Shown here piece by piece: positions 25,867 through 47,902 of a stretch of DNA of 64,000 bases. Numbering within the stretch: position 1 is the first letter of the stretch; every line of letters starts with the position of its first letter. Origin of the DNA: Granulibacter bethesdensis (GTDB lineage Bacteria > Pseudomonadota > Alphaproteobacteria > Acetobacterales > Acetobacteraceae). Both the position numbers and the translations under genes were made by a program. The notes beneath the pieces are model-generated. The model was not told the origin of the DNA. It made no database searches and saw only the letters and a list, made by a program, of their open reading frames with translations. The DNA lies in assembly GCF_001889545.1 (NCBI RefSeq), contig NZ_CP018194.1:1958501-2022500 (forward strand). The letters are read 5' to 3'.

Positions 25867-25876
25867 CACATTACCT

Positions 25877-25893: not shown

Positions 25894-26077
25894 TCACGTG
25901 ATCAGCAGAATTTTAAGACATCAATACGATTACGGCTCACAGTAGGCATCTTGCTGCTTGTTTTATAAGCGCACAGATGCCTTCTTTTTGTGCCACAGGC
26001 TCCGCTCTGGACTTGGTGGAGGCCGGACTGAAATGGTCCCAATCACCACAGACGTGCAGGTGCCCCCCCCCACACAC
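25894..26077. other. Spacer between the guanidine operon and the toxin-module array; no gene recognised
   Basis: No convincing coding sequence, RNA or repeat is seen here. It ends at a run of nine C's (26063-26071) that marks the edge of homology to the cdiA-derived fragment. The 26078-side junction looks like an old recombination breakpoint. Confidence 0.4.
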
Positions 26078-26405
26078 AACACCGCTCAGCGACGCCGTCA
26101 CGCCAGAGAAATTCGTCTTCTGCGACTGCGTCTGCGTCGTCGTATCCTGCGGCTGCACCGATAACCGCATGCAGTGCCAGAGCCGCCGCACTGTCTTCCT
26201 TCCAGCCTGCCTTGCGGATCTGTGCGCCGGCAACCTCATTCGCAACCTGACCGAACAGCTGTGCAGCGCCCTGACTGAACGCCAGATCATTCCGCGTCTG
26301 CTGCGGATCGAACCTGTTCTGCACACCGTTCGTCGTCTGCAGCGACGTGCTGCCGCTGCCAGCAACGCCGATCAGTGTCGCACTATAAGTCGTGATATCG
26401 CCAGT
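26078..26405 (-). pseudogene. Scrambled remnant of a cdiA C-terminal module
   Basis: Reading the minus strand from 26405, the first part repeats the module start (GDITTYSATLIGVAGSG, then VQNRFDPQQTRNDLAFSQGA, to about HAVIGAA near 26155). It is then joined out of frame to an unrelated piece of the cdiA FHA-2 region (DTTTQTQSQKTNFSGVTASL), which ends at about 26078. Toxin and immunity sequences are missing. This is the distal, most decayed unit of the array, and its joint shows illegitimate recombination within cdiA-derived DNA. Confidence 0.75.
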
Positions 26406-26801
26406 TTACTTTAACAGATGTAACTTCGCCCATTCTAAAAAAGATGGAGAAAGAGGAGCTTTAACACCGGCTATATTAAATGTTTTTATTAATTCTTTCC
26501 CATATATAGTAGAATATAATTGATAGCCATACCAAAGCAAATCATCGCTTTCTGGATCAGTATTTTTTAGATTGTCGATGGCTTCCTGTGCAGATATTTC
26601 TCTTCCAGTATCAATTTCTGCGATTCCCGTGTCGCAGCAAGCTTCAACAAAACCAATCACTCTGTGCTTCCATGTCGATTCACCTGAAATTTTTTCATAG
26701 GATTCTATTTCAGGAAGAATAGCATAAGGACTCATCTCTGTAATACTCAGAAGATAAATACTACTTTGATAAGATTGAAGAATTAATTCGTTACACATCA
26801 T
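26406..26801 (-). CDS. Putative CDI immunity protein, orphan module C
   Basis: A 131-residue AT-rich gene starting one base after the stop of the upstream toxin module, the classical position for a CdiI immunity protein. It is about 80% identical by eye to the protein at 28078-28473. It is mostly helical and acidic (REISAQEAIDNLKN; SFLEWAKLHLLK at the C-terminus) with no signal or membrane segment, consistent with a cytoplasmic neutraliser. I do not recognise a named immunity family. Differences from its paralogue cluster mid-protein (DPESDDLL versus a longer different stretch), where toxin contact may occur. Confidence 0.7.
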   Translation of the reverse strand: MMCNELILQSYQSSIYLLSITEMSPYAILPEIESYEKISGESTWKHRVIGFVEACCDTGIAEIDTGREISAQEAIDNLKNTDPESDDLLWYGYQLYSTIYGKELIKTFNIAGVKAPLSPSFLEWAKLHLLK

Positions 26802-26802
26802 T

Positions 26803-27996
26803 CTACTCGTGAGGAAATTTTAGCTTTAGGATATTACCATTGTTTATTGATTTTGTAAGCGGATCATTGATCTCAACCGTTGCGGTCGTCGGCAACGTTC
26901 TCTCACTTGCCTGCCCAGCTGGACGGAAGGTTATGCTACTACCATCACTGAATTTCGCAACCCATGCTCCAGGTTTATCGGCAATTGAACCTATACTTTC
27001 TGCTTTTCTACCATTGAATGCCTTGAAAGCGAACTGTTCAGCGGTTTCATCAGGGTTGGCACTGGCAGGCATTTCACGCGGTGTGCCAGGACCACCGATA
27101 GGCGTGCCAACAAAATCTCCGTTCAGCTTGTATAAATTTGATAAATTGTTGCTCCGATTAGAGAGAACATTCAACAGTGTCTTCTGGGCATTCAACGTTG
27201 CCTGATCGGCCTCAGCAACAGTTTCCGTGCCTACAGGAGCATTCTTGATAAGTGTCTGCCACCCTTCAGGTGTGGTATTGAGATTCTTGATCTCCCGCGC
27301 TTCTGCCAGCATCGCCCGCGCCTCTGCCAGCGCCTGCTCCAGCCTCCCCACATCTTCACGCGTCGGCACATAATTTTTCGGCGCGATCGTCTGAAGCGCC
27401 AGATTCTCCGGATCAATTTCCGCAAGCTCGCGGTAGGCTACACCGTAGTTATGCGCGTTGAAAATTTCCTCATCTGTCAGTGGCCTCCCATCCGGGCCAA
27501 CAGGGCGTGCAACCTCTTCATCAAGAGGCTCTTCCTGATTGTAGAGTGTGGAACTGGCGGCGGCAGAGCCACCCAGAATGGCGCTGATACCAGCACTTCC
27601 ACTCCCAACCCCTGTCAGCGCGCCCACGCCAGAACCTACAGCCGCACTCGCCATGAGAATAACAACACGGCCAATGGCGCTGTCAGGACGGATCGAGCCG
27701 CCATGCAGATAGTCCTGCCACAGATATTGCTGCAATTGCGCCGCTGAATACGTGCCAGCCGCAGCGCCAAGTCCTCCAGCCAGCATGCTGCCGGCGCTGC
27801 CATTCCCTGCGATCGCACCTTGCGCTGCACCGATAACCGCATGCAGTGCCAGAGCCGCCGCACTGTCTTCCTTCCAGCCTGCCTTGCGGATCTGTGCGCC
27901 GGCAACCTCATTCGCAACCTGACCGAACAGCTGTGCAGCGCCCTGACTGAACGCCAGATCATTCCGCGTCTGCTGCGGATCGAACTTGTTCTGCAC
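26803..27996 (-). CDS. Orphan CdiA C-terminal (toxin) module C
   Basis: A 397-residue module lacking secretion signal and adhesin. It begins in cdiA-derived sequence (the frame is open from 28077; a GTG at 27996 begins VQNKFDPQQTRNDL). A hydrophobic Gly/Ala-rich pretoxin follows (VILMASAAVGSGVGALTGVGSGSAG), then a helical linker rich in E and A (residues ~190-225). The C-terminal ~75 residues (from about NPDETAEQFAFKAF) are the probable toxin, with SDGSSITFRPAG and TATVEIND. That end resembles small BECR-type RNase toxins by pattern only. It is near-identical to module B except for the last ~55 residues. Probably silent unless recombined into a full cdiA. Confidence 0.65.
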   Translation of the reverse strand: MQNKFDPQQTRNDLAFSQGAAQLFGQVANEVAGAQIRKAGWKEDSAAALALHAVIGAAQGAIAGNGSAGSMLAGGLGAAAGTYSAAQLQQYLWQDYLHGGSIRPDSAIGRVVILMASAAVGSGVGALTGVGSGSAGISAILGGSAAASSTLYNQEEPLDEEVARPVGPDGRPLTDEEIFNAHNYGVAYRELAEIDPENLALQTIAPKNYVPTREDVGRLEQALAEARAMLAEAREIKNLNTTPEGWQTLIKNAPVGTETVAEADQATLNAQKTLLNVLSNRSNNLSNLYKLNGDFVGTPIGGPGTPREMPASANPDETAEQFAFKAFNGRKAESIGSIADKPGAWVAKFSDGSSITFRPAGQASERTLPTTATVEINDPLTKSINNGNILKLKFPHE

Positions 27997-28077
27997 ACCG
28001 TTCGTCGTCTGCAGCGCAGTCCCGCCGCTGCCAGCAACGCCGATCAGTGTCGCACTATAAGTCGTGATATCGCCAGT

Positions 28078-28473
28078 TTACTTTAACAGATGTAACTTCG
28101 CCCATTCTAAAAATGACCAAGAAAGAGGAGCATTAACTTCATCTATATTAAATGTTTTTATTAATTCTTTACCATATGCAGTAGAATATAATTGATAGCC
28201 ATACCAAGGCGCGCCATTTTCGATCTTTCGAACAGTATTTTTTAGATTGTCGATGGCTTCCTGTGCAGATATTTCTCTTCCAGTATCAATTTCTGCGATC
28301 CCCGTGTTGCAGCAAGCTTCAATAAAACCAATCACTCTGTTCTTCCATGTCGATCCACCTGAAATTTTCTCGTAGTCTTCTATTTCAGGAAGAATAGCAC
28401 TAGGACACATCTCTGTGATACTCAGGAGATAAATACTATTCTGATAGGATTGAATAATTAATTGATTATACAT
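28078..28473 (-). CDS. Putative CDI immunity protein, orphan module B
   Basis: A 131-residue AT-rich gene four bases after the stop of the truncated cdiA copy. It is paralogous to 26406-26801, with shared blocks SIYLLSITEM, TGREISAQEAIDNLKNT and SFLEWAKLHLLK. It is predicted to be a cytoplasmic antidote to toxin tail B. Just after its stop the next module's sequence begins, with no independent promoter visible, so expression probably depends on readthrough or a weak internal promoter. Confidence 0.7.
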   Translation of the reverse strand: MYNQLIIQSYQNSIYLLSITEMCPSAILPEIEDYEKISGGSTWKNRVIGFIEACCNTGIAEIDTGREISAQEAIDNLKNTVRKIENGAPWYGYQLYSTAYGKELIKTFNIDEVNAPLSWSFLEWAKLHLLK

Positions 28474-28477
28474 CGTT

Positions 28478-31351
28478 CTATTCCCGGGGAAATTTTAGCT
28501 TTAGGATATTATTTCTATTTATTTTTTTTACTATAGGATCATTGATCTCAACCGTTGCGGTCGTCGGCAACGTCTCCCTACCAGCCTGTCCAGCTGGACG
28601 GAAGGTTATCCAACTACCATCACTGAATTCCGCAATCCATGCTCCAGGTTTATCGGCAATTGAACCTATACTTTCTGCTTTTCTACCATTGAATGCCTTG
28701 AAAGCGAACTGTTCAGCGGTTTCATCAGGGTTAGCACTCGCAGGCATTTCACGCGGGGTGCCAGGACCACCGATAGGCGTACCAACAAAATCTCCGTTCA
28801 GCTTGTATAAATTTGATAAATTGTTGCTCCGATTAGAGAGAACATTCAACAGTGTCTTCTGGGCATTCAATGTTGCCTGATCGGCCTCAGCAACAGTTTC
28901 TGTACCCACCGGGGCATTCTTGATAAGTGTCTGCCACCCTTCAGGTGTGGTATTGAGATTCTTGATCTCCCGCGCTTCTGCCTGCATCGCCCGCGCCTCT
29001 GCCAGCGCCTGCTCCAGCCTCCCCACATCTTCACGCGTCGGCACATAATTTTTCGGCGCGATCGTCTGAAGCGCCAGATTCTCCGGATCAATTTCCGCAA
29101 GCTCGCGGTAGGCTACACCGTAGTTATGCGCGTTGAAAATTTCCTCATCTGTCAGTGGCCTCCCATCCGGGCCAACAGGGCGTGCAACCTCTTCATCAAG
29201 AGGCTCTTCCTGATTGTAGAGTGTGGAACTGGCGGCGGCAGAGCCACCCAGAATGGCGCTGATACCAGCACTTCCACTCCCAACCCCTGTCAGCGCGCCC
29301 ACGCCAGAACCTACAGCCGCACTCGCCATGAGAATAACAACACGGCCAATGGCGCTGTCAGGACGGATCGAGCCGCCATGCAGATAGTCCTGCCACAGAT
29401 ATTGCTGCAATTGCGCCGCTGAATACGTGCCAGCAGCAGCGCCAAGTCCTCCAGCCAGCATGCTGCCGGCGCTGCCATTCCCTGCGATCGCACCTTGCGC
29501 TGCACCGATAACCGCATGCAGTGCCAGAGCCGCCGCACTGTCTTCCTTCCAGCCTGCCTTGCGGATCTGTGCGCCGGCAACCTCATTCGCAACCTGACCG
29601 AACAGCTGTACAGCGCCCTGACTGAACGCCAGATCATTCCGCGTCTGCTGCGGATCGAACTTGTTCTGCACACCGTTCGTCGTCTGCAGCGCAGTCCCGC
29701 CGCTGCCAGCAACGCCGCCCGTCACCGTCCCGAGCGCCGTATTCGCCGTCAGTTGCTCAGGACGCAGCAGGGTCGACGGAACAGTGCCGTCACGCACCGT
29801 CACACCAACATTGTTCGTGATCGCAGACAGCGTCGTGCTGTGGGCATTGTCGTTCGTCTGAGATACACCGCCGCCGCTGCCGACACCGCTGCTCGACGCG
29901 CTGGCAATCACAGAAACCGCAGAGGAGTTCGAATGATTCTCCACATTGCTGACCGTCAGAGAACCGGTGTTCAGCACATTGTCATTCGCAGGCGCGGTGC
30001 TCGAGATCACAGCGCCGGTCAGCGAGGTATTGCCACCGACAGTGATGTTCAGACCACCATTCCCGGCAAAAATTCCGGTCTGCGACACCACAGAGGCATA
30101 GCCATTCCCGATATGGTCCGTCGCAGCAGAGACAGAGCCGCCACTGGTTCCCGTGATGCCGATCTGCACATTCACCGAACCACCGCTCTGGCTGCTGCTG
30201 CCGCTCGCTGTCGCCTGTGTGCTCTTCAGGATCAGATCGCCGCCTATACTCGCAACAACGCGGTTCCCGGCCACATCTGCGCCTTCAAGACGCGTGTCCT
30301 TGCCGCTGATCAGCGTCAGCGTGTTCCCGGCCGCCACCACCGTGTTCACAGGCGTGCTGCTGCTGGCAACCGTGCCACCCTGAGCCCAGCTGGCGCTCCC
30401 CTCAACACCATAGCCTGTGCTTTGCGTGCCAATACCGGCATACACGCCCACAGCAGCAGACTTCGAAACATTGTCGTTGCTGAACTGCGTGCTGTTCTCC
30501 GCTGACTGCAGAACGATGTTTCCCGTCGAGACCAGCGCAACATTCCGGCCACCGCTCAGCGTCGCCCCACGGGCCGTGATGTCACCAGACGTCGCCACGA
30601 CAGACAGGTTACCGCCAGCAACCGCGCTGCTCCCCTGCGCCGTGCTGCTGAAATAACCCGCACGGTTCTCGCTGCTGGAGGTTCCAGCCATCACATCAAC
30701 CTGCAACAACTGCCCGTTCTTGCCAGAAGACGTCGCCGCATCAACCGCCTTGTAGGCCTGATACCCGGCATAGGCCGCCTGCCCCCCGTCCAGAGCCTGC
30801 AGACGCGGATCAGTTTGGCGATCCGACGCCGCAACCGCCGCAGAGGTGTAGGCATTCCCCACAACACCGCTCAGCGACGCCGTCACGCCAGAGAAATTCG
30901 TCTTCTGTGACTGTGTCTGCGTCGTCGTGTCGTGAGACACATCGAAAGTAACGCTTTTGCCGATGATCGCCATATCACCGCCAGAAGACAGATGAGCATC
31001 CTTCAACGTCACCGCACCACCGGCATGCACGGTCAGATCACCCGACAGAGAGCCCACCGCGCTGGCGACATTCGTCACCTGCGTTGTCGTCGTCGTGCTG
31101 CTGTTCTGCTGCAATCCCGCGCCAACAGCGACAGGGATCGCACTGCTCCCCATGCTGAAAACACCGGCTTTCTTGTCATTCTGATAATCCGTGAGGCTCA
31201 GCGTCTGCTGCGCGCTCCGGATCGAGATGTCACCGGCAGCGTCCAGCACCACGTTCCCCGTGCCGACAACGCCAGACCCGACAATATTGATGTCCTTGCC
31301 TGACACAATCGAAACAGTATCACCCGATACTGTGCTGCCAACCGAAAACAC
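28478..31351 (-). pseudogene. 5'-truncated cdiA copy with toxin tail B
   Basis: 957 codons from a GTG; homology to the full-length cdiA reaches back to about 31415, where the frame closes. It lacks the signal peptide, TPS domain and FHA-1 stalk, so it cannot be exported as it stands. Residues 1-~575 are near-identical to the FHA-2 region of the full gene (STVSGDTVSIVSGKDINIVG through GTALQTTNGVQN). The last ~380 residues are pretoxin and toxin tail B, ending in SDGSWITFRPAG, TATVEINDP and LKLKFPRE. It works best as a silent donor for replacing the CdiA tail by homologous recombination. Confidence 0.8.
29612..31345 (-). repeat. Long direct repeat, copy in truncated cdiA
   Basis: Near-identical to 33655-35388 at a constant offset of 4043 bases. 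Translations of several hundred bases in more than one frame are identical. The left edge falls in the pretoxin start (FDPQQTRNDLAFSQGA) and the right edge near STVSGDTVS, after which the two copies differ (sparse substitutions, then divergence). Confidence 0.9.
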
Positions 31352-31447
31352 AGCCTCCGTCCGCGTCGATACCGTGTTGTGGTGGTAATCTATCCCCGAC
31401 TGGACGAAGGAAAGGGCATTTTATTTTTAAATGTTTTCTATTTAAAA

Positions 31448-31765
31448 CTATTTATCGGTATTGGAACGATAAGCAATAGCTAATCCGTCCAAAGCTTTTT
31501 GCAACTCGATCGGGTTCTTCCTTAAGTCTCTCATGTAGCCCCCTCCCCCTGTTTCTCCTACAATATAAGCAGAAAATTGTTTTAAAAACCAATCCTCTGG
31601 ATGGAGAGTAATATTTTTATTCATAAAAAATATCCAAAAGCCATCTCCTTGAATAAATTGATCATCCAATATATTTATATCATCCGGAATTTCGATAAAT
31701 TTCACTCTATCTCTTAGCATTAATTCTGCTCTAGTTTTTGCCTCCTCAAAATTTCTCTTTTTCAT
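31448..31765 (-). CDS. Putative immunity protein paralogue (Imm35/YrhB-like), second copy
   Basis: A 105-residue AT-rich gene about half identical to 31874-32191: N-terminal MKK.NFEEAK, FWIFF.NKNI in the middle, and YMRDLR..P.ELQKALDGLAI at the end. Small size, Trp-containing core and linkage to a papain-fold toxin suggest the Imm35/YrhB type, with modest confidence. Its ATG overlaps the TGA of a toxin-tail remnant in the same arrangement as the intact pair. It may give immunity to a toxin variant the cell no longer encodes. Confidence 0.65.
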   Translation of the reverse strand: MKKRNFEEAKTRAELMLRDRVKFIEIPDDINILDDQFIQGDGFWIFFMNKNITLHPEDWFLKQFSAYIVGETGGGGYMRDLRKNPIELQKALDGLAIAYRSNTDK

Positions 31766-31824
31766 TTCTCAATATCCCATGGCATTTTTGGGGGCATAAT
31801 CTGGACGAACAACCTAATGCTTTA
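31762..31824 (-). pseudogene. Remnant of a displaced Tox-PL-type toxin C-terminus
   Basis: The minus strand in frame reads RLFVQIMPPKMPWDIEK then TGA, overlapping the ATG of the next gene. The intact CdiA ends RVGYPNFETPLVPWDVKK with the same TGA/ATG overlap. An in-frame stop lies shortly upstream, so only the tail survives. It shows that the second immunity gene once followed its own toxin. Confidence 0.6.
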
Positions 31825-31873
31825 CCAAGACCAACAAAGGAATCAGCTTTATTTTCAAATTATTTGGATAAAA

Positions 31874-32191
31874 TTATTTGAAATTGTCAGGGTGATGGGA
31901 AATAGCTAAACCATCCAAAGCCTTTTGCAACTCTGTTGGCTTATTCCTTAAATCTCGCATGTACCGCGTGCCTCCATATTCACCTATTACACAACAACAA
32001 AATTGTTTTTCAAACCAATTTTTCTCAGAAAAAATTATATTTTTATTAGGGAAAAATATCCAAAAATATTTACCACGTATAAAATTATCATCTAATAAAT
32101 CAATTCCATCAGGAATATAAACATTTTCAAAATGCAATCTGAGATCTTTTATTGCTTTTTCTTTTGCTTCTTCAAAGTTTAATTTTTTCAT
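31874..32191 (-). CDS. cdiI: Putative immunity protein for the CdiA papain-fold toxin
   Basis: A 105-residue AT-rich gene overlapping the cdiA stop by four bases (ATGA), the standard toxin-immunity layout. No signal peptide or membrane segment is present. Conserved with its paralogue: FEEAK, FWIFFPNKNI, YMRDLRNKPTELQKALDGLAI. Patterns (Phe-Trp core, small alpha/beta) suggest Imm35/YrhB-type immunity, which is known beside papain-like polymorphic toxins; this assignment is by recollection and pattern. Base composition is very different from the surrounding chromosome. Confidence 0.75.
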   Translation of the reverse strand: MKKLNFEEAKEKAIKDLRLHFENVYIPDGIDLLDDNFIRGKYFWIFFPNKNIIFSEKNWFEKQFCCCVIGEYGGTRYMRDLRNKPTELQKALDGLAISHHPDNFK

Positions 32192-35100
32192 TTCTTAACA
32201 TCCCATGGCACTAGGGGGGTTTCAAAATTAGGATAACCAACCCTAAGCTTTACTTCAGAATTAAGATTAACAACTAACCCACTTTGTCCATCAATGAAAT
32301 ACACTTTTCCATTAAGGTTTGTTGCAACAATTGCATGATGAGTGTCTCCAGGCTGAAGAATAATAATCAAACGGCTCTGCCCAGACTTCAACCCTCTCAT
32401 ATAATGAGAAACTTCACTCACAGTAGCAGGCTTACTAAAATTTGCGGCGTCAAGATCCAATTCACTACCCCGACCAAGATTATCAGCGACTGCTGCAGAA
32501 TTTTTGCCAGTCAGGCGCTCATAAACCGCATTGGCACAGGATGTGCAGTTATTATTCCTGCCACCAACACTATAATGTGGATTGACGCCAATCAGTTGCG
32601 GAAATTCTGACTCCATCGGTTCTGCACTTGTATAAATTTCAGGCAGGGCGCTTCCAACACGGCTGGCAACCAATGACGTTTTCGCGGCGGCAATAGCTGA
32701 CGCCAGCAAAGTGGGAGCAGTAGGGGAGCCGCCCAGTTCAGGTGCAGTCGCAATAATGTCGTGAACAATAAGGCCAAAATAGTTTGCATAGCAGGCAGCA
32801 CTTGCTCCGCACATCGCATGGATTGTTGCTGCTGCTTCAATACCTTCATACGCCGCAATGGCAGAGACCGCTGTAACGACACCACCTGCAGCACCAAGAT
32901 CAAACCCTTTAAGAATAGAGCCAAGGTATTGAGCATCACGAGAATCAATGATTTTCTGGGTCAGATGGTCTACCGCCCAAAGTTTTTGATACTCTTCCTT
33001 TAAAGCCGCTACATCAGCGTTATTAAGGTCTACTCCTGCGGTATCTGCTGCTCTCCATGTCGCTGCAGCATTGCTCAAGCGTTGGCTCTGACTCAAACAA
33101 GCGAGCGATCCACCCGTCAGGCACGCCTGCACGACCGCCAGATTTGTCTGATTATCAATATCCTCAAGTGTTTTAATGGTGTCTGTATAGGTCTTGATCT
33201 CATCCTCGCTGCAACTACCATTGCTTTTACATGCAGCAAGCGCTTTTTCAGCATTGATTTTCTGAACAGCCTGATAATGAGTTAAATAGTTAAATAATGT
33301 CGCGCTCTGCGCAGCAGATGCTCCAACCAGTGCCCCCTGTTGACCATTAACAAGTGCCCCGATTCCAGCTCCAACTGCTCCACTGGCAAGCTGTAATATA
33401 ATACGGCCTTCCGCACTGTCTGGCTGCACCCCATGCTCAATCAGATAGTTACCCATCCATTGAGTTAATGCCGTACCACCGGCGGCTCCCAATCCACCGC
33501 TCGCAGCACTCCAGGCCGTATTCCCTGCTATATATCCCTGCAGAGCACCAATCATACTATGCAGCAAAAGGGAGCGTGGATCATTCTCGCTCCAGCCGCG
33601 TGATGTAATCAGATTGCCTGCAAATTCATTCGCAACCTGTCCAAACAGATTTGCAGCGCCCTGACTGAAAGCCAGATCATTCCGCGTCTGCTGCGGATCG
33701 AACCTGTTCTGCACACCGTTCGTCGTCTGCAGCGCAGTCCCGCCGCTGCCAGCAACGCCGCCCGTCACCGTCCCGAGCGCCGTATTCGCCGTCAGTTGCT
33801 CAGGACGCAGCAGGGTCGACGGAACAGTGCCGTCACGCACCGTCACACCAACATTGTTCGTGATCGCAGACAGCGTCGTGCTGTGGGCATTGTCGTTCGT
33901 CTGAGATACACCGCCGCCGCTGCCGACACCGCTGCTCGACGCGCTGGCAATCACAGAAACCGCAGAGGAGTTCGAATGATTCTCCACATTGCTGACCGTC
34001 AGAGAACCGGTGTTCAGCACATTGTCATTCGCAGGCGCGGTGCTCGAGATCACAGCGCCGGTCAGCGAGGTATTGCCACCGACAGTGATGTTCAGACCAC
34101 CATTCCCGGCAAAAATTCCGGTCTGCGACACCACAGAGGCATAGCCATTCCCGATATGGTCCGTCGCAGCAGAGACAGAGCCGCCACTGGTTCCCGTGAT
34201 GCCGATCTGCACATTCACCGAACCACCGCTCTGGCTGCTGCTGCCGCTCGCTGTCGCCTGTGTGCTCTTCAGGATCAGATCGCCGCCTATACTCGCAACA
34301 ACGCGGTTCCCGGCCACATCTGCGCCTTCAAGACGCGTGTCCTTGCCGCTGATCAGCGTCAGCGTGTTCCCGGCCGCCACCACCGTGTTCACAGGCGTGC
34401 TGCTGCTGGCAACCGTGCCACCCTGAGCCCAGCTGGCGCTCCCCTCAACACCATAGCCTGTGCTTTGCGTGCCAATACCGGCATACACGCCCACAGCAGC
34501 AGACTTCGAAACATTGTCGTTGCTGAACTGCGTGCTGTTCTCCGCTGACTGCAGAACGATGTTTCCCGTCGAGACCAGCGCAACATTCCGGCCACCGCTC
34601 AGCGTCGCCCCACGGGCCGTGATGTCACCAGACGTCGCCACGACAGACAGGTTACCGCCAGCAACCGCGCTGCTCCCCTGCGCCGTGCTGCTGAAATAAC
34701 CCGCACGGTTCTCGCTGCTGGAGGTTCCAGCCATCACATCAACCTGCAACAACTGCCCGTTCTTGCCAGAAGACGTCGCCGCATCAACCGCCTTGTAGGC
34801 CTGATACCCGGCATAGGCCGCCTGCCCCCCGTCCAGAGCCTGCAGACGCGGATCAGTTTGGCGATCCGACGCCGCAACCGCCGCAGAGGTGTAGGCATTC
34901 CCCACAACACCGCTCAGCGACGCCGTCACGCCAGAGAAATTCGTCTTCTGTGACTGTGTCTGCGTCGTCGTGTCGTGAGACACATCGAAAGTAACGCTTT
35001 TGCCGATGATCGCCATATCACCGCCAGAAGACAGATGAGCATCCTTCAACGTCACCGCACCACCGGCATGCACGGTCAGATCACCCGACAGAGAGCCCAC

Positions 35101-38100
35101 CGCGCTGGCGACATTCGTCACCTGCGTTGTCGTCGTCGTGCTGCTGTTCTGCTGCAATCCCGCGCCAACAGCGACAGGGATCGCACTGCTCCCCATGCTG
35201 AAAACACCGGCTTTCTTGTCATTCTGATAATCCGTGAGGCTCAGCGTCTGCTGCGCGCTCCGGATCGAGATGTCACCGGCAGCGTCCAGCACCACGTTCC
35301 CCGTGCCGACAACGCCAGACCCGACAATATTGATGTCCTTGCCTGACACAATCGAAACAGTATCGCCCGATACTGTGCTGCCAATCGACAGAACAGCTTC
35401 CGTCTGCGTCGATACCGTGTTGTGGTGGAAATCTGTCCCGGACCCACCAAACGAAACACCGCTTTCACCATACGAGGCCCAGCTGTCATGGCGCTCCGAC
35501 GCCGAAAGCAAGGAAATATCACCGTTCTTCGTCTCAAGGCTGACGGCGCCATGATCGCTCAGAAGGTTCGCAGCTGTTCCGGTGATCGAGCCACTCGCAA
35601 ACAGTGACAGACCGTTACTCCCGGAGAGAGTGCTGCCCTGAACGTGCTCGTCATACGTGCCGATCGTTTGCGAACGACCATCCATCAAGCCCGTATGGCT
35701 ACTCGATGCCTCCCGCGTTTCGCTGCTGGTCACAGTGTTCAGCGTGATGCTGCCTGTCGTGAAAGCATCCAGAGTCCCGCCCGCTTTTACGCTACTGCCG
35801 TTCAGCGTGATCCCGCCATTACCAGCCGCCAGGGTCACATTACCGCCGGCATTGACCGATGAACCAATCTGAAGCGTGACATCATGCAACCCGCTGAAGC
35901 TGCTGCTGTTACCAAAACCGCTTTTGCTGCCAGAGATCGTGCTCGACAAGCTGTTCGTCGAGGAATCAAGGGAAAGCGATTGGCCGCCGACAAGCGTGGT
36001 ATCTCCACCAGAAGACAGCGTGATGCCCTGCAAGCTCAGCTTATCTTTCGCAGACACAATTGCGTTCTTGCCTGCGGTAAGTGTGGTACCAAGATTTTGT
36101 GTCAGATTAAAATAACGGCTGACACCACCAAAGGAAGAGTCATCCTTCGTCGAAAGCGCGAGACTGCCCAGAGAAACATTTCGTCCAGCCTCAATTTCGA
36201 GAGAGTTCCCTGCTCCAAACACGCTTCCTGCCGACACGATATCCTGACTGGCCTTCATCGTCAGGTCATCACCCGCGACAATAGAAGCAACTCGGCTGAC
36301 GGACTCTACCGAACCCCCCATCGTCTGCCAGCCTTGCTTCGTACTACTGCTAATGATCGAGCCTCCAGCCTGAAGCAGAAGATCATTGCCTGCTTTCAGC
36401 GTCCCGCCATTATTCACGATGTCGCCGGTAACCGAGATCGACAGATCATTCGATGCAGAGACCGTCCCGGAATTGTAAAGCCCCGCCGCTTTCAGCGTGA
36501 CATCCTTGCCAGACAGAACCGCACCATCGCTCAGCACCTTATCCCGGCTACCGGCCGCCAGATAGAGCTGTGGTACCAGAACCGTTTGACCGTTCACGAT
36601 CCTCGGCACATACCAGACGATATCTTTGTCCAGACCAGCCACCTGCTCCGATGTCAGATCCACACCGATTTGCAGACCAAGCGCCTGGGACTGGCTCGCT
36701 GCATTGTTCAGCAGAGCCACCATCTGCGCCTGCTCCGTGCTATACGCTGCGCTGAGCGTCGCATGGCCTGTGGCATCCGAAATCTGCTGCGCCACATAAC
36801 GCGTGTCGAAATACGCATCCCCAAGAAAGGGTGGTGTCGTCTGCGAATTCGCTCCCAGGCGATCAAGAAGATACTGAGACCCGTAGAAACCCTTGAACGT
36901 CGTGTAATTCGGGTTCGTCTCTATCAGATAATGCGCTTGCGGAGCCGGATTGGGAATGAACAGAGCATTCCCACCAGCAACAGAGGCAATAATCTGGGAC
37001 GTACTCGGGCCGCTACCAATCCCGGGTATCGAGGAAGAAGATGAGCCAGCATTTGTAGCAACACCACTCTGAAATTGAGGCAGAACAGCTGCAGACGTTG
37101 CCCCTATACTAACCCCGCCTGCTCCCGGCATTTTAGCCGCATTGCCCTGATTGATGGCGATCGCATTGCCATTACCGCCCCAACCTGTTGTGCCCTGACT
37201 TCCTCCAGGGAGTTGAGAGCCTGAACCACCGACAGATCCCACGCCCTGCATAGACAGATTACCAATAGCGACACCCCCACCACCTTGTGATTGTGTCAAG
37301 GAGCTCGATGCGCCCGGCACGGCATAGGAAGCTGCGCCGTTTGGCAGGCCACCCGTAGTGGAGGCCAAACCACCCGGCAAGGTTGCCATTGAGCCCAATC
37401 CTCCATTGCCATTGACAATGAAGCTGCCGGCACCATTGGAACCCGCTGGCGCTGCTGCTGTCGAGGGTAATGGAACCGTACCACCAAAGCCCATCATCTG
37501 GGATGGAGTGGCTTGGGCAATCTTTGTCTCGTTAGTAATCGTCCCTGTGAAATTGCCGGTGATATTGCCACCAGCAATGATGGTACCGGTGACACTTGAG
37601 GCCGCTGCATTAAACCAGGCCTCAGGCACAACCGGATGGCCCGCACCGATAACCCATCCAGGCATCGGTATATTAGACGGTAATGGATCAACAAGCGGCA
37701 GGGCTGAACGGCAACTGTTATTGCCCGTACAGGTCGTTGTATACAGGACATTTCCCTGATAGCCAACGTTGTTGAGGCTTCCTCCGGTCAGGTTAATATT
37801 TCCACCCGCGGAAAGATGGCTTGCATCATTTTGAATGCCGTTACTCGAATTTATTGTGAGGTTGCCACCAGCACTGATCAAAGCCGCTGCAGCATTACGC
37901 ACATAGCTGGCACCAGTCCCTTCAACCAGAATACCGGACTGTGCACTCTGGTCATAAAGAGCAAACCAGACACCACCAGGCCCAACCGGATTTGGGACAT
38001 AAACGTGCTTTGTGGATGTCCAATATTGATTAATATCCGAGGAAGATTTGAAATTACTGAGATCTACTGCTGGCGGATTTTCGTTGGTTGCATAAAGTTT

Positions 38101-41100
38101 CTGGAACACAACGCCAGATATCTGATTCACACCACCGACGACATCATTGGTGATGTTGTGGGCATCAATATTGATATTGCCACTTGATGATGCCGCCTGG
38201 ATAAGGCCGGAATGATTGAACAAGGCACTGGCAGAGTTGCCTGCCTGCCTGCCCCCAATAGTCAGATTACCATTTTCAGCGATAAGAGCACCCTGATTAT
38301 TAGTCAGGACACCATTAAGGCCGATACTCAGATCGGTGGATCCATATATCAACCCTGTATTGGTAATATCCCCACTCACCAGCAGCTGCATGGCGGTCGT
38401 GCTGAACAGACCACCGGCATTGTTCAATGAATTCGCGGAGATATTCAGTTCACCATTGGCGCCAATGCTTTGGCCAGAAGCAATGCTTAACGTGCCATCT
38501 ATATCAAGGGACATATCCTTGCCAGATGCCACGCCTGCGAAATCTGCCGCCGTAAAATCACCGCTTACCTGCAAGGACAGATTATTCGCTGCACTTATCT
38601 TTCCAATGTCTGATTGTGCAGAAGCCTGTATTGTCAGGTCACCTTCACCGGTCTGGATTGTGCCATTAGCATTATTCAGCAATGCAATGGAATTATTCAG
38701 CAGACCTCTGATCAAAAGAGAACCTGCAAGAGCAATAATACTCCCGCCTGTATTACTGAGTGTGCCATCAATATGAAGTGTAGCACCTGTTTTACCAACC
38801 ATCATCCCTTGGTTGGACAGATCGCCGGATACTGCTGTATTGAGCGCCCCACCAGCCCCTATGGAACCATTATTGGTAAGCGATCCTGCGCTGATCGTGA
38901 AATTACCCTCGACCGTAACCAGACGGGCATTTTTGTTATTATTCAGCTCTCCAGCCACCTGCAGGGAACCAGATGAGGCTGAAATAATAGAGCCATCATT
39001 GTCGAATGATGCTGCTTTCAGCATCATTTGTGATGTTCCCTTGCTTTGAATCTCTCCTTTATTAAGGACATCCCCGGTCGTGATTACGCTGACACTACCA
39101 TCCTGTGCCCCGAGCGAGCCGCCATTCACCACGGTGCCACCCGCGGTAATCACCAGATTTTGACCACCGACTAGTGCACCCTCTGTACCGACAGTGACAG
39201 ATTTTGCAGAAACCAGAGTGACCGACTGGCTTCCCCTTACCTGACCAAGCGCATTATCATAATATAAGCCAGCATTAATACTGACATTACCGGCATTGGC
39301 CTGGATATTGCCCTTGGAGTTGACAAGGGCAGACATTGCATTATTTCCGATGCCTGCCAAAAAAATATCACCGGTTGTAGCGCCGATTATTCCTTTGTTC
39401 TCCAGAATCCCGGCAACATTCATAACCAATCCGGTTTTACCCAGGAGTGTGCCCGTATTGGTCGCACCGCCTGAATCAGTGATGAACAGCCCGGCAAAAG
39501 ATGATATGGCTCCAGAGTTACTAAAACTCCCTGCCTGCACGGTTACTATATCATTGACTGAGCCAACTGTTCCCGTGGCGTCATTAACAAAGAAACTACC
39601 AACGTTTAGAGCAACAGCGCTGCTCGCTGTTATTGAGCTACTATTGGTTAAATTACCTGACACTATCAGGGCTATGTTACCATTCTGTGCGACGAGACTG
39701 CCTTGATTGTCGAGATCACTGGCCATCAAACTCACCAGCCCGGATGCGGCCCCAACAGTAGCGCCAGCCATTATAGCCATTTGACCTGATGTATTGATTG
39801 TCAGGCCATTTGAACCACCCGCCAAGACGCCCGCTGTATTGACGGAACCATCAGCCACCATAATTAATGCTGTTGCCGCGCTGATTTTACCAGCAGCATC
39901 CGAAGAATAACTATCCGTTACAACGGACACGGCTCCCTTTGCTGCCTGTATACTCCCTCCGTTATTAGTCATAGCAGCAAGGGCTGCACCGCCTGATAGT
40001 CCACGCAGTGTGATGTCGCCTGTACCAGCGGCGATTATGCCTCCATCATTATGAAGCGCTCCTCTGGCACCAAGCAATACACCACTCTGCCCATAAAAAA
40101 GGCCTGTATTGGTCGCATCACCTGCCACTGAAGCAGACAACATGCCCTGAGCCGCCAGACCGGTTGGGGTTCCCTGCGATGGAACGGCTGTATTGCTAAA
40201 GGAACCTGCAGATATTGTAAGATTGCCACCTTTGGCAGAAATCAATCCGTAGTCAGTATTATTGAGTATGTTAGCCACAGTCAGTATCTGCTGACCGCTT
40301 GCCACTATTTGTCCATTATTCGTCAATGATACGGCCTGCAAGCTAATATCACCGGCTACAGCCTGCACCAGTCCGGCATTAATCATTTTCACGGCAGAAA
40401 TCGTAACACCGCCCTGCAGCGCACCCATCATACCGTTATTGGTCATGTCTCCGGCAGAAAGGACAAATTGACCGCCACTGATATTGCCCTGCACCGACAC
40501 TGCATTGGAAGCTGATAAATTCAACACCTCTTTGGCACTGATGATACTGCTGGCAGTATCATCATACGAGGCTACCTCAATTCGGACATCACCGGCAGAA
40601 GCCTGTATCTGACCTCCGTTATTGATCATGGCCCCTGTTGTCGGACCTGTCAGTCCATCCAGCACCACATCGCCATCCGGGGCGGTGATAGAGCCTCCAC
40701 TGAGAGTCAGAGTGCCATCGACGGCGATGGCTACTCCGGCTTCTCCGTAAATCATTCCGGAATTACTGACATTCCCGGTAACTTTACCACTGATGGCGCC
40801 TGCACTCAGAAGACCTGTGCTGGCTCCAGTCGCCGTATTAAAAAATGTCCCCGCAGAGAATTGCAGGCTGCCTCCCAGCGCTGCGATCTCGCCGGAACCA
40901 CTATTCTCCATTTGATTCGTTATACTAAGTGCAACATTTTTACTTGCAGCAATTCTGCCGCTATTATTCAATGATCCAGCGTTCAGTGATAAATCGCTCG
41001 ATACAGCCAGCATACTGCCTGTATTGGCAATTGTTCCTGATGTCATGGCAATTTTGCCTGACTGCGCTCCAATGGTACCTGTATTGTTCAAGGAGGCGGA

Positions 41101-44100
41101 GGTTAAAAGCAGATCGCCAGCAGAAGCCTCAATAGCTCCATTATTGATCAGCATACCACCAATACCAAGCGTCAGGCTTTTAGCAGAAATTTGTCCAGCG
41201 TTTGTATCATTACCGCTGACAGTCACCGTCATTTCCTGCGCGGAAAATAATGCGCCGTTTCCAGAAAGGGTTCCTGTATTCAGGGACAGCGTCCCTTGAC
41301 GCGCAACAATGGCACCTCCTCTCGGGACGCCATTAACAATACCAGCACCATTATTAATAATCTGTCCGGATGCACTTCCTGACTGGACACCTTCAATAAT
41401 AATATTACCACTTTCAGTAACAATGATACCATTTGTATTATTGAGTGTACCAATAATACCAAACATTTCCCCGGCACCGGCAGATAGTGTGCCGCTATTG
41501 GTTACTTCAACGGCCTTAAGGCTCAACAATCCTGTATTGGCTATGATTGAGCCTGTATTGGCCGTAGTACCCTTTACAGCAACTGTGATGTTTCCAGAAT
41601 AAGTACCAATGATACCAGCGTTCTCAAGCGCACCACCAGCAGCCAATTGCAGTCCTGTGCCACCCGTGATCTTGCCCTGTGCACCAACAGAAAACGTATT
41701 CGCTGCGTTCAACGATACCTGACCTGAAGCCGTGATCGCGCCGGCACCAGCATCTGTATAGGAACCAACTTCAACCTTCACGTCTCCAACCGGGGCCTGG
41801 ACTTTGCCACCTGTACCGATCAGACTATTTCGGGCTGCCAGCGATACATCCCCGGTCGCCGCCAGAACAGTGCCATTCGTGTTATCAAAAGCACCACCAC
41901 CGGTCAGGCTAACACCGGTTTGGCCACCCAGCAGGCCACCCGCATTGCTGATATCACTGGCAACATGCAACATCAGCGCAGCAGTCTTGGCTATCATATA
42001 GCCAGCATTGCCAAGAGAGCCGGCCGATATTGAAAGAGCACCACCCTGCGCAATAATCTGAGCGGATAAAGCATTGCTCAGCAAACCAGACACCGTCATG
42101 GTCTGCGCACCTGAGGCCTCTATCTGGCCGCTATTCAACAAGGAGGATGTCGTAACCGAAACATCTCCTGCCACCGCCGCGATCTGACCGCTATTGACCG
42201 TTGCGCCACCAGTAATCGTAACAGGACCATGCTGAGAACCGATGACACCTCCATTACTAAGAGCACCACCAACGATCAGTTGAAGACCTGTGCCACCCGT
42301 GATCTGACCCTCGGCACCAACAGAAAGCGCATTCGCTGCATTCAACGATACCTGACCTGAAGCCGTGATCGCGCCGGCACCAGCATCTGTATAGGAACCA
42401 ACTTCAACCTTCACGTCTCCAACAGGGGCCTGAACCTTGCCGCCTGTACCGATCAGACTATTTCGGGCTGTCAGCGATACATCCCCGGTCGCCGCCAGAA
42501 CAGTGCCATTCGTGTTATCAAAAGCACCACCACCGGTCAGGCTAACACCGGTTTGGCCACCCAGCAGGCCACCCGCATTGTTGATATCACCCACAACATT
42601 AAACGTCAGTGAAGTAGTCTTGGCTATCATATAGCCAGCATTGCCAAGAGAGCCGGCCGATACTGAAAGGGCACCACCCTGCGCAATAATCTGAGCGGAT
42701 AAAGCATTGCTCAGCAAACCAGACACCGTCATGGTCTGCGCACCTGAGGCCTCTATCTGGCCGCTATTCAACAAGGAGGATGTCGTAACCGAAACATCTC
42801 CTGCCACCGCCGCGATCTGACCGCTATTGACCGTTGCGCCACCAGTAATCGTAACAGGACCATGCTGAGAACCAATGACACCTCCATTACTAAGAGCACC
42901 ACCAACGATCAGTTGAAGACCTGTGCCACCCGTGATCTGACCCTCGACACCAACAGAAAGCGTATTCGCTGCGTTCAACGATACCTGACCTGAAGCCGTG
43001 ATCGCGCCGGCACCAGCATCTGTATAGGAACCAACCTCAACCTTCACGTCTCCGACAGGGGCCTGAACCTTGCCGCCTGTACCGATCAGCCCATTTCGGG
43101 CTGCCAGCGATACATCCCCGGTCGCCGCCAGAACAGTCCCATTCGTGTTATCAAAAGCATCACCACCGGTCAGGCTAACACCGGTTTGGCCACCCAGCAG
43201 GCCACCCGCATTGTTGATATCACCCACAACATTCAACGTCAGTGAAGTGGTCTGGGCCATCATCTTACCGGCATTACCCAGAGAGCCAGCTATTACAGAC
43301 AAAGGACCACTCTGGGCTATAATCTGACCTGAAGACGGATTGCCCAGTAACCCGGCTACATTCAGGGATAATGTTCGCGTGTTGGCGAGAATAGTTCCAT
43401 TGGTATTATCGAATGCATTACCAACCTGCAGTGAAATACCTTTCTGACCCTGGATTGTGCCTCCAGCATTGATTGAAGCATCAGAAACCTGAATTGCAAA
43501 CAATCCAGTGCTGCTGGCTATGGAGCCCGTATTTGCAAATGCGTTAGCAATGACGCTAAAATCAGAACCGGATACAATCTGACCACTATTGTTCAGACCA
43601 CCTTTTACGTTAGCCAGAATTGTACCAGCCACACTGATTTGCCCGGTATTACCCAGTGAACTGGCCGCAACAGCCAGATTACCAGAGGAAGCAGTAATCT
43701 TGCCGGTATTCATCATATCAGCAGAGCGGATGGTAACAGCGCCCGACTGCGCACCCACTATACCACCATTAACCAGCAGACCGCCTGCACTCAATACCAG
43801 ACCGGCATTACCGGTTAACTGCCCCTGGATAAGCGTTGAATCTGTTGAAAGGAGCGCCATCCATCCTGACGCAGCTGCAATACCGCTGCCTGCATCAGCA
43901 TACGATTGGGTCTGCAGCCTGACATCGCCATTTTGAGCCTGAATCCGGCCATTTGTATTTACCAGTCCCGCCATGGAAAGACTGGTTGAGTCTCCATTAA
44001 GCATTACTGCACCAGATGCGGAGGCAATCTGACCACCGGTATTATCAAGTGTTCCACCGATCCAGCCGGTCAATCCTGTCTGTGCTGCCAGCACCCCACT

Positions 44101-45435: not shown

Positions 45436-47171
45436 CAGAATTTAACTCCGGCCTGAAATGCATAAATCCACCCGTCATGACCAAGTGGTCCTTCTGCAAG
45501 TGCATGCTGTGCCGAAATATCCCAGAATACAGGACCACTCAGGCTTCGAAATCCCAATGCCGCCCCTGCTATTTGACCACGAACAAGAGCCTGTCGTGTC
45601 CCCGGAAGAGAGGCATCAGATTCTGCCCAACCTGCATCAAGGCCAATATAGGTCTCTATTTTACCGCTTAAGATGTCGATATTTTTGAGGCCTGTGCGCG
45701 GTAGAGTCCATGTGATGTCATTGCGCGTATAAGCGCCATGATCACCAATCAGGCCGACATTGACGAATCCTCTGACAGTATAGATACCGCCAATTTGCAA
45801 AGACTGCGGCGAATAGAGATGCACATTGGCATAGTCCGCATGGATAAAATTGTGTAACCGCGCACGCAATGGGAGCGGTTGGTAAATATCGATATCAAGA
45901 CTGGGCCTGATATAAACAGCATGCGGATCAGTCGCCGTTGGATTCGCAATTTCCAGAGATGTGCCAAAACCAGGAAGACCACCCTGCAGACCCATTGTCA
46001 GAAAATACTGACCGCCCAGCATTCGTCTGCTATAACTGAGTCTGATTGCAAGGGCTGCCAGATCTTCACTGGCCGTCAACAGCCGTACATCATTGATACT
46101 GGAGTGGACCTGCTTCAGCTCATAGCAGAATTCAAGTGTTGTTTTGCTGATTTGCCCCCGTGCCAGCACACGGCTCAATCCAGCTTTCCAGGTCAGCGTA
46201 TCACCCGCCAACTTGAAGGTATCGCTGCGTGCAACCAGCGGATAGGTATAGCTTGCATAACGCCAGTCCAGAAAAGCTGTCCAGTATCCATAAGGGATTG
46301 CCACATCGAACGCCGCGTAACTACTATTCCGTGAGTGCTGAAGCGGAAAAACAGAGTGATCATACTCTGCAGACCAGACATCCAGCATGCCTAAGGGATC
46401 ATCAGCACGTAAAAGTACGTGACCCGTGTTACGACCAGTCCACTGTTGCCCATAATTGTCTATCCAGGCAGCACCGTGCAGCCATCCATGGTGTGGTGTT
46501 TCAATTACCACAATGCTGGCGCCAGTCGTTTTTCCCGGCGCTATATGCATTCTGGCATCCCAGCTGGGCAGACGGTTCATCTGTTCCAGCCCTTGTTCCA
46601 GATCTCTCAAGTTCAGGATGTTTCCAGAGAGACCAGGAAAAGCCCCCTTTTCATGCTGTGCAGATGTCTGACCCTTGAAAAGAAAGCTATCGACATGGCC
46701 CTCTACCGCTACAATCCGGACAGTGCCATATGATAAATCCTGTTGTGGCAGATAAGCTCTGGATGTCACAAAACCGGCATCAATATAAGCCTTGTTGAAT
46801 GCATTGATCAGCTTATCAAGATCACCCAGCGACAGACATTTTTGTATAAAAGAAGAAGCCAGAGCCTGCTGCTGCCAGGGAGCAAGATGGTCAGCTCCTT
46901 TTACTTCAATACGGTTGACTTGTATGCAACGCCCTCCTGATGGAACCGCAGCTGAGGGAACATGCAGTTCGATATCTCCCTCCGGAGGTGCAATACGCTG
47001 CAACTCCCGCTCGCGATCCTGCGCCCGACCACGCTGCTGCTGGTCAAGTGCATTACCGATGACAGGAGTTGAACCACTCTGAAAGATTTGTGCCTGCGCA
47101 TTGATCGCGTACACTGACAGGAAGCTCATAGCCATACAAAAGGCCAGCCTCCAATAATGAGGCGCCATCAT
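45435..47171 (-). CDS. cdiB: CdiB/ShlB/FhaC-type two-partner secretion outer-membrane transporter
   Basis: A 578-residue Omp85-superfamily protein that exports CdiA. Signal peptide ends near AINAQAQ. An N-terminal plug helix region rich in Q/R/E follows, then POTRA domains (RCIQVNRIEVKGAD; LDKLINAFNKAYIDAGFVTSRAYLPQQDL) and a C-terminal 16-strand barrel (YTVRGF..VGLIGDHGAY; DAGWAESD; FQAGVKF with terminal Phe). The FhaC conserved Arg loop would be the VRGF segment. AAGGG precedes two adjacent Met codons. It is 47 bases after the IalB-like gene and one base overlapped with cdiA. Confidence 0.94.
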   Translation of the reverse strand: MMAPHYWRLAFCMAMSFLSVYAINAQAQIFQSGSTPVIGNALDQQQRGRAQDRERELQRIAPPEGDIELHVPSAAVPSGGRCIQVNRIEVKGADHLAPWQQQALASSFIQKCLSLGDLDKLINAFNKAYIDAGFVTSRAYLPQQDLSYGTVRIVAVEGHVDSFLFKGQTSAQHEKGAFPGLSGNILNLRDLEQGLEQMNRLPSWDARMHIAPGKTTGASIVVIETPHHGWLHGAAWIDNYGQQWTGRNTGHVLLRADDPLGMLDVWSAEYDHSVFPLQHSRNSSYAAFDVAIPYGYWTAFLDWRYASYTYPLVARSDTFKLAGDTLTWKAGLSRVLARGQISKTTLEFCYELKQVHSSINDVRLLTASEDLAALAIRLSYSRRMLGGQYFLTMGLQGGLPGFGTSLEIANPTATDPHAVYIRPSLDIDIYQPLPLRARLHNFIHADYANVHLYSPQSLQIGGIYTVRGFVNVGLIGDHGAYTRNDITWTLPRTGLKNIDILSGKIETYIGLDAGWAESDASLPGTRQALVRGQIAGAALGFRSLSGPVFWDISAQHALAEGPLGHDGWIYAFQAGVKF

Positions 47172-47218: not shown

Positions 47219-47902
47219 TTACGGCTTGGGGGCAGATGCTGAAGATATCGCCTTGGCATTGACAGACGAATCGGGATGAGCCGCTATTGGTGCCTTGCCA
47301 CTTTCAAATGCTGCCAGCGCCTCAGCCACACCATTTAAGGCAAAATTCAGTGTCACCCCACGTCCATTGCTCATGACAATGCGCACATGCCCCTGCCTGC
47401 CATGCCTGAACTGCGACAGAAACGATGAAGAAATAACCGATCGTGCAAAACAGCCCCGATTATCACAGAACTGATACTCAAGGGTGGTTGTATGGCCGCC
47501 ATCGGCTGATAATGCCAATGCAGATTTCAACTGTACACCTAACGGTGCAACAACGGTTGCCGTGTAAGGCTTTCCAGGTGCTTCTGCCATAAAGGCAAGC
47601 GTCAGGATTGGAACCAGTTTATCTTCCTGCTTGAGAAGCATCTGCTGGGCGATTTCGCAAACAGGATGTTGCAACTTCTCGGCAGGAGCCGCGACTTCCT
47701 GACAGCGATAGATCCAGTCACCAAAAACCTGGCTTACCACCCCAGGCTTTGCAGATACTTGTGCAGAAGAAGAGGCTGGGGAAGACATTGCGGGCGCAAC
47801 TTCGCTTACTGACTTAACCTGATCAGACTTGGCAAGAGACACAGCCGGAACAATCATCACACCAGCTAGGAGAACCATTGCAAATTTGGTAAAAACTATC
47901 AT
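47219..47902 (-). CDS. Invasion-associated locus B (IalB)-family secreted protein
   Basis: A 227-residue exported protein with signal peptide (VLLAGVMIVPAVSLA), a Ser/Ala-rich linker, then an IalB domain: VFGDWIYRCQEV, HPVCEIAQQML, VVAPLGVQLKSALALS, CDNRGCFARSVIS and LNFALNGVAEALAAF. Four Cys could form two disulfides. IalB was named from Bartonella invasion but the family is widespread in alphaproteobacteria and its function is unclear. It precedes cdiB by 47 bases on the same strand, so it is likely the first gene of the cdi operon. ATG 47902 is preferred to a TTG four codons upstream. Confidence 0.85.
   Translation of the reverse strand: MIVFTKFAMVLLAGVMIVPAVSLAKSDQVKSVSEVAPAMSSPASSSAQVSAKPGVVSQVFGDWIYRCQEVAAPAEKLQHPVCEIAQQMLLKQEDKLVPILTLAFMAEAPGKPYTATVVAPLGVQLKSALALSADGGHTTTLEYQFCDNRGCFARSVISSSFLSQFRHGRQGHVRIVMSNGRGVTLNFALNGVAEALAAFESGKAPIAAHPDSSVNAKAISSASAPKP

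What the first reader, a model, noticed from the sequence alone, without database searches (positions are those of the whole stretch)
26078..32191. Array of displaced CDI toxin/immunity modules behind an active cdiA
In transcription order: cdiA toxin and immunity; toxin-tail remnant plus immunity; 5'-truncated cdiA with toxin B and immunity; orphan toxin C and immunity; scrambled module. This is a layered record of repeated toxin replacement, with immunity genes kept after loss of their toxins. It gives an unusually complete series from intact to decayed.
Basis: partly seen in the sequence, partly recalled or inferred. Interest (0 to 1): 0.75.

Follow-up and report, generated by a model that had tools for sequence, protein, structure and literature searches.

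The report
Spare CDI toxin tails behind cdiA
Behind a gene for a bacterial contact-killing protein lies a row of spare toxin tails with their antidote genes; this is a known type of arrangement, but a related species carries the same tails in swapped positions, so the spare tails are probably reused rather than just rotting.

Summary
The array is real and is an orphan cdiA-CT/cdiI array, a known kind. On the minus strand: cdiB, a 4,415-aa cdiA with papain-fold tail A, immA1; a toxin-A end remnant with immA2; a 5'-truncated cdiA with tail B and immB1; a second tail B with immB2; remnants.

Two congeners (G001, G002) carry different tails at the expression site. G001 has B on the full-length gene and A silent, the reverse of the window. 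The immA | truncated-cdiA junction is shared by the window and G001, so I infer that B was already displaced in their common ancestor and later returned to the main gene in G001. In the window, 1,660 bp are identical between main gene and silent copy, with all differences near the two ends, as recent conversion would leave. The silent distal toxin B of G001 and G002 shows dN/dS 0.29.

The cdi locus is about five times more diverged (dS about 1.1 versus 0.2) than its flanks and sits at another site in the congeners. The layered-record reading is supported; re-use is favoured over pure decay. Expression and killing are untested.

The parts
45435..47171 (-). cdiB (TpsB transporter, 578 aa)
   Evidence: PF03865 ShlB E 2.7e-63, POTRA_2 1.1e-21, POTRA_3 3.8e-18
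32188..45435 (-). full-length cdiA, 4,415 aa, the expression-site gene
   Evidence: one open frame; PF05860 TPS E 2.2e-47, Fil_haemagg_2 E 4e-48
32188..32610 (-). toxin A domain of the main gene (papain-fold, glutamine-deamidase-like)
   Evidence: PF15644 E 1.3e-8, 36.3 bits against a cut-off of 24.1; the NNNC, HAIVATN and FIDGQ segments are also kept in the silent G001 copy
33616..35443 (-). arm of cdiA shared with the silent copy
   Evidence: 98.9% identical to 29573-31400
31874..32191 (-). immA1, immunity gene of the main gene, overlapping the cdiA stop
   Evidence: 105 aa; no Pfam or NCBIfam match up to E 1
31766..31825 (-). remnant of a displaced toxin A end
   Evidence: homologous to the cdiA 3' end (alignment); stops in all three frames
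31448..31765 (-). immA2, immunity gene left without its toxin
   Evidence: 56% aa identity to immA1; open frame
28478..31400 (-). 5'-truncated silent cdiA copy with tail B1 (longest GTG frame 31351-28478, 957 aa)
   Evidence: 29573-31400 is 98.9% identical to the main gene; 29662-31321 identical over 1,660 bp
28078..28473 (-). immB1
   Evidence: 131 aa; homologs follow tail B in G001 and G002
26803..28042 (-). second silent module: module start, pretoxin and toxin B2 (GTG frame 27996-26803, 397 aa)
   Evidence: 95.2% identical over 1,895 bp to module B1
26406..26801 (-). immB2
   Evidence: 82% aa identity to immB1
26152..26370 (-). remnant of a module start (anchor) of a further, lost module
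   Evidence: 97.3% identical to 29499-29717
26054..26149 (-). remnant of cdiA repeat DNA at the island edge, also present as a scar at the empty site in G001
   Evidence: 26075-26149 is 94.7% identical to 34903-34977; the edge at 26054 is read by eye; G001 scar score 52 against a maximum of 30 in 100 shuffles
47219..47914 (-). IalB-like gene that accompanies cdiBA at both chromosomal sites
   Evidence: PF06776 E 8e-30; homologs next to cdiB in G001 and G002

Best explanation
This is a two-partner-secretion CDI locus with an orphan cdiA-CT/cdiI array. Shown by sequence: one full-length cdiA carries toxin A, and silent, 5'-truncated copies of the cdiA 3' end carry toxin B with their immunity genes. 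In the window the main gene, both B modules and the end remnant share a module-start segment (145 bp or more, encoding DPQQTRNDLAF), and the first silent copy shares a 1.8-kb arm with the main gene. Inferred: a new tail enters the expression gene by recombination in the shared sequence and the old tail with its immunity gene ends up downstream. The same arm later exchanges with the main gene (conversion), so that a displaced tail can return. The main protein is exported by CdiB and delivers toxin A to neighbours; immA1 protects the producer, and immA2, immB1 and immB2 protect against kin that use the other tails.
For: Anatomy. Different tails at the expression site: window main = A, G001 main = B, G002 main = B pretoxin with another toxin; A silent in G001; distal silent B in all three. 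The immA | truncated-cdiA junction is shared, gapless, by the window and G001, so B was probably displaced before these loci diverged, and it is on the main gene in G001. Recent exchange: all 20 differences between main and silent arm lie within 89 bp of one end and 79 bp of the other, with 1,660 bp identical between (0 of 20,000 random placements); G001 has a run of 1,205 bp (96 of 20,000). Selection on silent frames: G001/G002 distal toxin B dN/dS 0.29, P 0.0016; pretoxin 0.27, P 0.003; immunity 0.34, P 0.001.
Against: No expression, transcript or killing data. The conversion signal is not significant in G002 (1,330 and 1,276 of 20,000). The selection signal for the window's own pair B1/B2 is weak for toxin (P 0.05) and immunity (P 0.09). 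Open frames alone are uninformative: a random model keeps each of the four frames tested open with probability 0.43-0.54. dN/dS below 1 could date from before displacement or come from conversion with an expressed copy. Toxin B in G001 may have been re-acquired from another strain rather than copied from its own silent module. Only three genomes of the genus were held, one per species, so no within-species comparison was possible. The structure predictions asked for did not run.
Confidence: 0.8

Rival explanations
1. Fossil record with an immunity bank: displaced tails are leftovers, and only the immunity genes are useful, against kin that still use the old toxin.
For: immA2 is open although its toxin is a short remnant; all 4 immunity genes of the window are open; the last module is reduced to fragments. 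Arenas 2013 proposes collection of immunity genes for meningococcal tpsC (abstract read).
Against: 7 of 8 silent toxin tails in the three loci are open (weak evidence), and the silent-silent toxin pair of G001 and G002 has dN/dS 0.29, P 0.0016. Toxin B is on the main gene in G001 although the shared junction implies that it was displaced in the common ancestor.
Confidence: 0.3
2. Repeated import: each species received its main tail from outside, and the array only stacks up old tails with no return.
For: Ruhe 2016 and the Acinetobacter paper describe displacement by newly acquired sequences (passages). The immunity gene behind the G002 main gene has no hit among the window ORFs compared (14000-52000), and its toxin end is at most a distant relative of toxin B (24% identity).
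Against: Tails A and B of the window are about as diverged from their G001/G002 relatives as the locus backbone is. In draws of 398 genomes of the phylum, each tail matched 2: the window genome and one weak partial match; G001 and G002 are not among those matches, so were apparently not in the draw.
Confidence: 0.2
3. Tandem-duplication noise: copies arose by recent unequal crossing over and have no role.
For: B1 and B2 are tandem units spaced 1,672 to 1,675 bp apart.
Against: The immA | truncated-cdiA junction is as old as the split of the two loci. B1 and B2 are 797 of 800 columns identical, then 288 of 300, then 429 of 500 over toxin end and immunity, then 46 of 48, which simple recent duplication does not give.
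Confidence: 0.07

Closest known systems
Orphan cdiA-CT/cdiI modules of E. coli and Yersinia (Poole et al. 2011, PMC3150448; passages read)
   Same: Truncated cdiA 3' ends with immunity genes in a row behind cdiBAI; varying amounts of upstream cdiA retained; few initiation signals; a tail silent in one strain is on the main gene in another.
   Different: No VENN motif in the proteins checked; the shared module start here encodes DPQQTRNDLAF. Toxin B, immB and immA match no Pfam, NCBIfam or PADLOC model above the cut-offs (PHROGs not searched). Here the swap is between species and an old junction is preserved.
tpsA/tpsC islands of Neisseria meningitidis (Arenas et al. 2013, PMC3848433; abstract, section 8 and part 1 of 2 of the discussion read)
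   Same: Silent N-terminally truncated copies with immunity genes; proposed recombination unit of copy, immunity gene and start of the next copy; about 1.4 kb at 99% identity between tpsA and tpsC1.
   Different: Recombination was shown there in isolates and in vitro, here only inferred. I made no toxin comparison with Neisseria.
Displaced 3' ends of Acinetobacter type-II cdi operons (PMC6336857, passages read)
   Same: Stepwise displacement with remnants ordered 5' to 3'.
   Different: Here a silent copy keeps a long identical arm and a tail appears to have returned to the main gene; the passages I read do not report this.
Displaced orphan modules on E. coli islands (Ruhe et al. 2016, PMC4927057, passages read)
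   Same: Names the two models weighed here: fossil record kept for immunity, or silent reserve for redeployment.
   Different: Those arrays often hold transposase or integrase genes; no such gene was looked for systematically here.
Orphan Rhs toxin of Salmonella Typhimurium LT2 (Koskiniemi et al. 2014, PMC3967940, passages read)
   Same: Recombination through shared sequence (522 bp at 95%) deploys a silent toxin.
   Different: Rhs system, not two-partner secretion.

Membership tests
CDI (cdiBAI) two-partner secretion locus | CdiB with POTRA and ShlB domains next to cdiA | tested here: met
CDI (cdiBAI) two-partner secretion locus | CdiA with TPS domain and hemagglutinin repeats in one frame | tested here: met
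CDI (cdiBAI) two-partner secretion locus | C-terminal toxin that varies between relatives behind a conserved stem | tested here: met
CDI (cdiBAI) two-partner secretion locus | small immunity gene directly behind cdiA | tested here: met
   position and reading frame only: immA1 overlaps the cdiA stop; protection not tested
CDI (cdiBAI) two-partner secretion locus | VENN motif before the toxin (common in enterobacteria, not universal: recalled) | tested here: not met
   0 of 10 CdiA-type proteins or parts hold VENN; 7 of 10 hold DPQQTRNDLAF (the G001 and G002 main genes were checked as C-terminal parts of 1,696 and 2,311 aa)
CDI (cdiBAI) two-partner secretion locus | contact-dependent growth inhibition | not testable with these tools
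   needs competition assays
Orphan cdiA-CT/cdiI array | cdiA 3' fragments with immunity genes behind cdiBAI, same strand | tested here: met
Orphan cdiA-CT/cdiI array | fragments share sequence with the main gene upstream of the variable part | tested here: met
   1,828 bp for B1, 145 bp for B2 and for the remnant
Orphan cdiA-CT/cdiI array | toxin fragments lack initiation and export signals | tested here: inconclusive
   no TPS domain found in B1 or B2; the longest frames start at GTG; before B1 a GGAGG lies 2 nt from the GTG, in a stretch homologous to cdiA coding sequence
Papain-fold toxin 1 (PF15644) | profile match above the gathering score | tested here: met
   36.3 bits against 24.1
Papain-fold toxin 1 (PF15644) | deamidase activity | not testable with these tools
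   biochemistry needed

The most novel reading that the evidence does not exclude
Tails A and B form a repertoire older than the present species, carried by two unlinked, anciently diverged cdi loci. The tails trade places between expression and silent positions over evolutionary time. Silent toxins stay under selection because they return, and the shared arm is kept usable by repeated conversion.
Probability: 0.4. Interest if true: 0.6.

Novelty: new member of a known kind. Interest (0 to 1): 0.42.

Why it matters
Why bacteria keep toxin fragments they cannot express, and not just the immunity genes, was called unclear by Poole 2011 (passage). Here one locus family gives relative dates: a tail apparently displaced in a common ancestor is on the main gene in one descendant, one pair of silent toxin frames shows purifying selection, and an identical recombination arm is present now. 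This makes natural switching testable by sequencing alone.

Tried and rejected
Third toxin family ('toxin C'): rejected, it is a second copy of B. Naming the organism: two genome-contig scans gave no confirmed relative (the tool says that near records may be left out), and the plasmid search gave 13 records that match only 59-75 bases at the start of the query, outside the array. Solved-structure relatives by sequence: toxin B none up to E 1, toxin A none, immB one at E 0.083; immA five designed alphaRep-type proteins, best E 1.4e-6, all over about 25 residues, which I judge spurious. Promoter-like and terminator-like sites in 25500-32700: no more than in shuffles (6 against 6.7, 3 against 7.6). 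Scar of a cdi locus at site 1 of the window genome: none above shuffles. Open frames as evidence of function: uninformative. Papers that hold 'contact-dependent growth inhibition' and 'Acetobacteraceae', or orphan, CdiA, gene conversion, toxin and immunity together: none in two searches of the held library, which is not proof of absence in print.
Full report
What is there. The region is on the minus strand, so transcription runs right to left. A CdiB-type transporter (45435-47171; ShlB E 2.7e-63 and two POTRA domains) is followed by a 4,415-aa CdiA (32188-45435) with a TPS secretion domain, hemagglutinin repeats and a papain-fold tail, called A here. Its immunity gene immA1 (31874-32191) overlaps the cdiA stop. 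Next come a toxin-A end remnant and a paralogous immunity gene immA2 (31448-31765; 69% DNA identity over the joint stretch). Then comes a cdiA copy without its 5' part, which carries another tail B and immB1, then a second B module with immB2, then a module-start remnant and a piece of cdiA repeat DNA. A DNA self-comparison gives the skeleton: 29573-31400 is 98.9% identical to 33616-35443 in the main gene, and 26152-28042 is 95.2% identical to 27824-29717. All five places in the window's genome that match the truncated copy are in this locus.

Comparison between species. Among 60 related genomes, 4 matched the truncated copy, the window genome included; two are of the same genus (G001, G002). 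The held collection has three genomes of the genus in all. In G001 the full-length gene (frame of 4,084 aa) ends in tail B with immB. Behind it lie a module with another pretoxin and toxin, a toxin fragment, a truncated cdiA with tail A and immA, and a distal B with immB. In G002 the full-length gene (frame of 4,074 aa) has the B pretoxin but a different final toxin and immunity gene, followed by a module with a further toxin and a distal B with immB. Thus the three genomes have three different toxins on the main gene, and the window and G001 have A and B in opposite positions. Seven of the eight silent tails in the three loci are open; the exception is the G001 fragment, which looks incomplete.

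Order of events. The piece that joins immA to the start of the truncated cdiA aligns without a gap around the joint between the window (near 31400) and G001 (near L019:7975), although the two loci are old relatives. I infer that the order A, immA, truncated cdiA, B, immB was present in their common ancestor, with B already displaced. In G001 B is on the main gene and A lies behind it, with newer modules in between. B therefore seems to have returned to the expression site, either from a silent copy or from another strain; the data do not separate these two routes.

Recent exchange. In the window, all 20 differences between the main arm and the silent arm lie within 89 bp of one end and 79 bp of the other, and the 1,660 bp between are identical (0 of 20,000 random placements). 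An old copy with diverged ends and an identical centre is what recent conversion leaves. G001 has a 1,205-bp identical run between its main gene and its silent A copy (96 of 20,000); in G002 two pairs were tested and the pattern is not significant (1,330 and 1,276 of 20,000). B1 and B2 agree in 797 of 800 columns before the toxin, in 288 of the next 300, in 429 of 500 over toxin end and immunity, and in 46 of 48 at the end. So toxin and immunity diverge between homogenised flanks.

Selection. For the distal B modules of G001 and G002, both silent today, dN/dS is 0.29 for toxin (16 of 32 differences nonsynonymous, 24.1 expected, P 0.0016), 0.27 for pretoxin (P 0.003) and 0.34 for immunity (P 0.001). 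For the window's B1 and B2 the values are 0.44 (P 0.05), 0.06 (P 0.0015) and 0.60 (P 0.09). The open frames by themselves prove little: each of four tested frames stays open with probability 0.43-0.54 under random change. Selection before displacement, or conversion from an expressed copy, could also lower these ratios.

Age and place. Six flanking genes, each compared with G001 and G002, have dS 0.165-0.248, whereas cdiB has dS 1.06 and 1.13 and the IalB-like gene 0.91 and 1.05. The cdi locus is thus about five times more diverged than the genome around it. It also sits elsewhere. The window's two flanks meet in the congeners: window 26122 and 48087 lie 36 bp apart in G001, and window 26002 and 48085 lie 100 bp apart in G002. 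The flanks of the congeners' locus are found in the window genome 76 to 113 kb away. Between them the window genome has a row of large same-strand frames: four that I scanned match AIDA stalk repeats, a 308-aa frame has no match, and one large frame cut by the fetch boundary was not scanned. At the empty site G001 keeps about 60 bp like the window's edge remnant and cdiA (score 52, maximum of 100 shuffles 30). G002 keeps a shorter piece that is weak on its own (32 against 30 for the window locus, 24 against 28 for the G001 locus). The simplest reading is two old cdi loci in an ancestor with different losses; independent import is possible, and no scar was found at the other site of the window genome.

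Spread. A profile of the silent cdiA part matched 25 of 299 genomes of the family, 3 of them the genus. Of the other 22, 9 have a second match within 6 kb on the same strand (my count from the table, in which at most two candidates per genome were scored). Toxin B and toxin A each matched 2 of 398 genomes of a phylum draw, one of the two being the window genome and the other a weak partial match.

Known or new. Arrays like this are described for E. coli and Yersinia, Neisseria and Acinetobacter, and a related process for Salmonella Rhs (passages, abstract or named sections read). The locus meets the anatomical marks of CDI and of orphan arrays; it lacks VENN and has its own module-start motif. 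I file it as a new member of a known kind. Toxin B, immB and immA match no Pfam, NCBIfam or PADLOC model above the cut-offs (below them only weak hits at E 0.087 or more); PHROGs was not searched.

Noticed in passing
window 26122-48087; G001:C1:1981979-1982015; G002:C1:1970543-1970643: The whole cdi locus is a 22-kb insertion relative to two congeners, whose own cdi locus lies at another site; G001 keeps a cdiA scar at the empty site.
   Followed up: yes
G000:C1:1872025-1902382 (L039, L040): At the site where the congeners carry cdi, the window genome has a row of large same-strand frames; four that were scanned match AIDA stalk repeats and RTX nonapeptides.
   Followed up: partly
window 47219-47914: An IalB-like gene is next to cdiB at both chromosomal sites and evolves under weaker constraint than cdiB (dN/dS 0.22-0.26 against 0.07-0.11); it may be an accessory gene of the locus.
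   Followed up: no
L019:12737-14335, L021:10378-12570, L019:11742-12143: A second module type shares a pretoxin up to the residues VKGYG and then has three different toxin ends; one, in L019, looks like an incomplete EndoU-type end (resemblance recalled, no profile match).
   Followed up: partly
L021:12996-13397: The G002 main gene changes toxin inside the B module, a second, more C-terminal switch point; the new end may be a distant relative of toxin B (24% identity).
   Followed up: no
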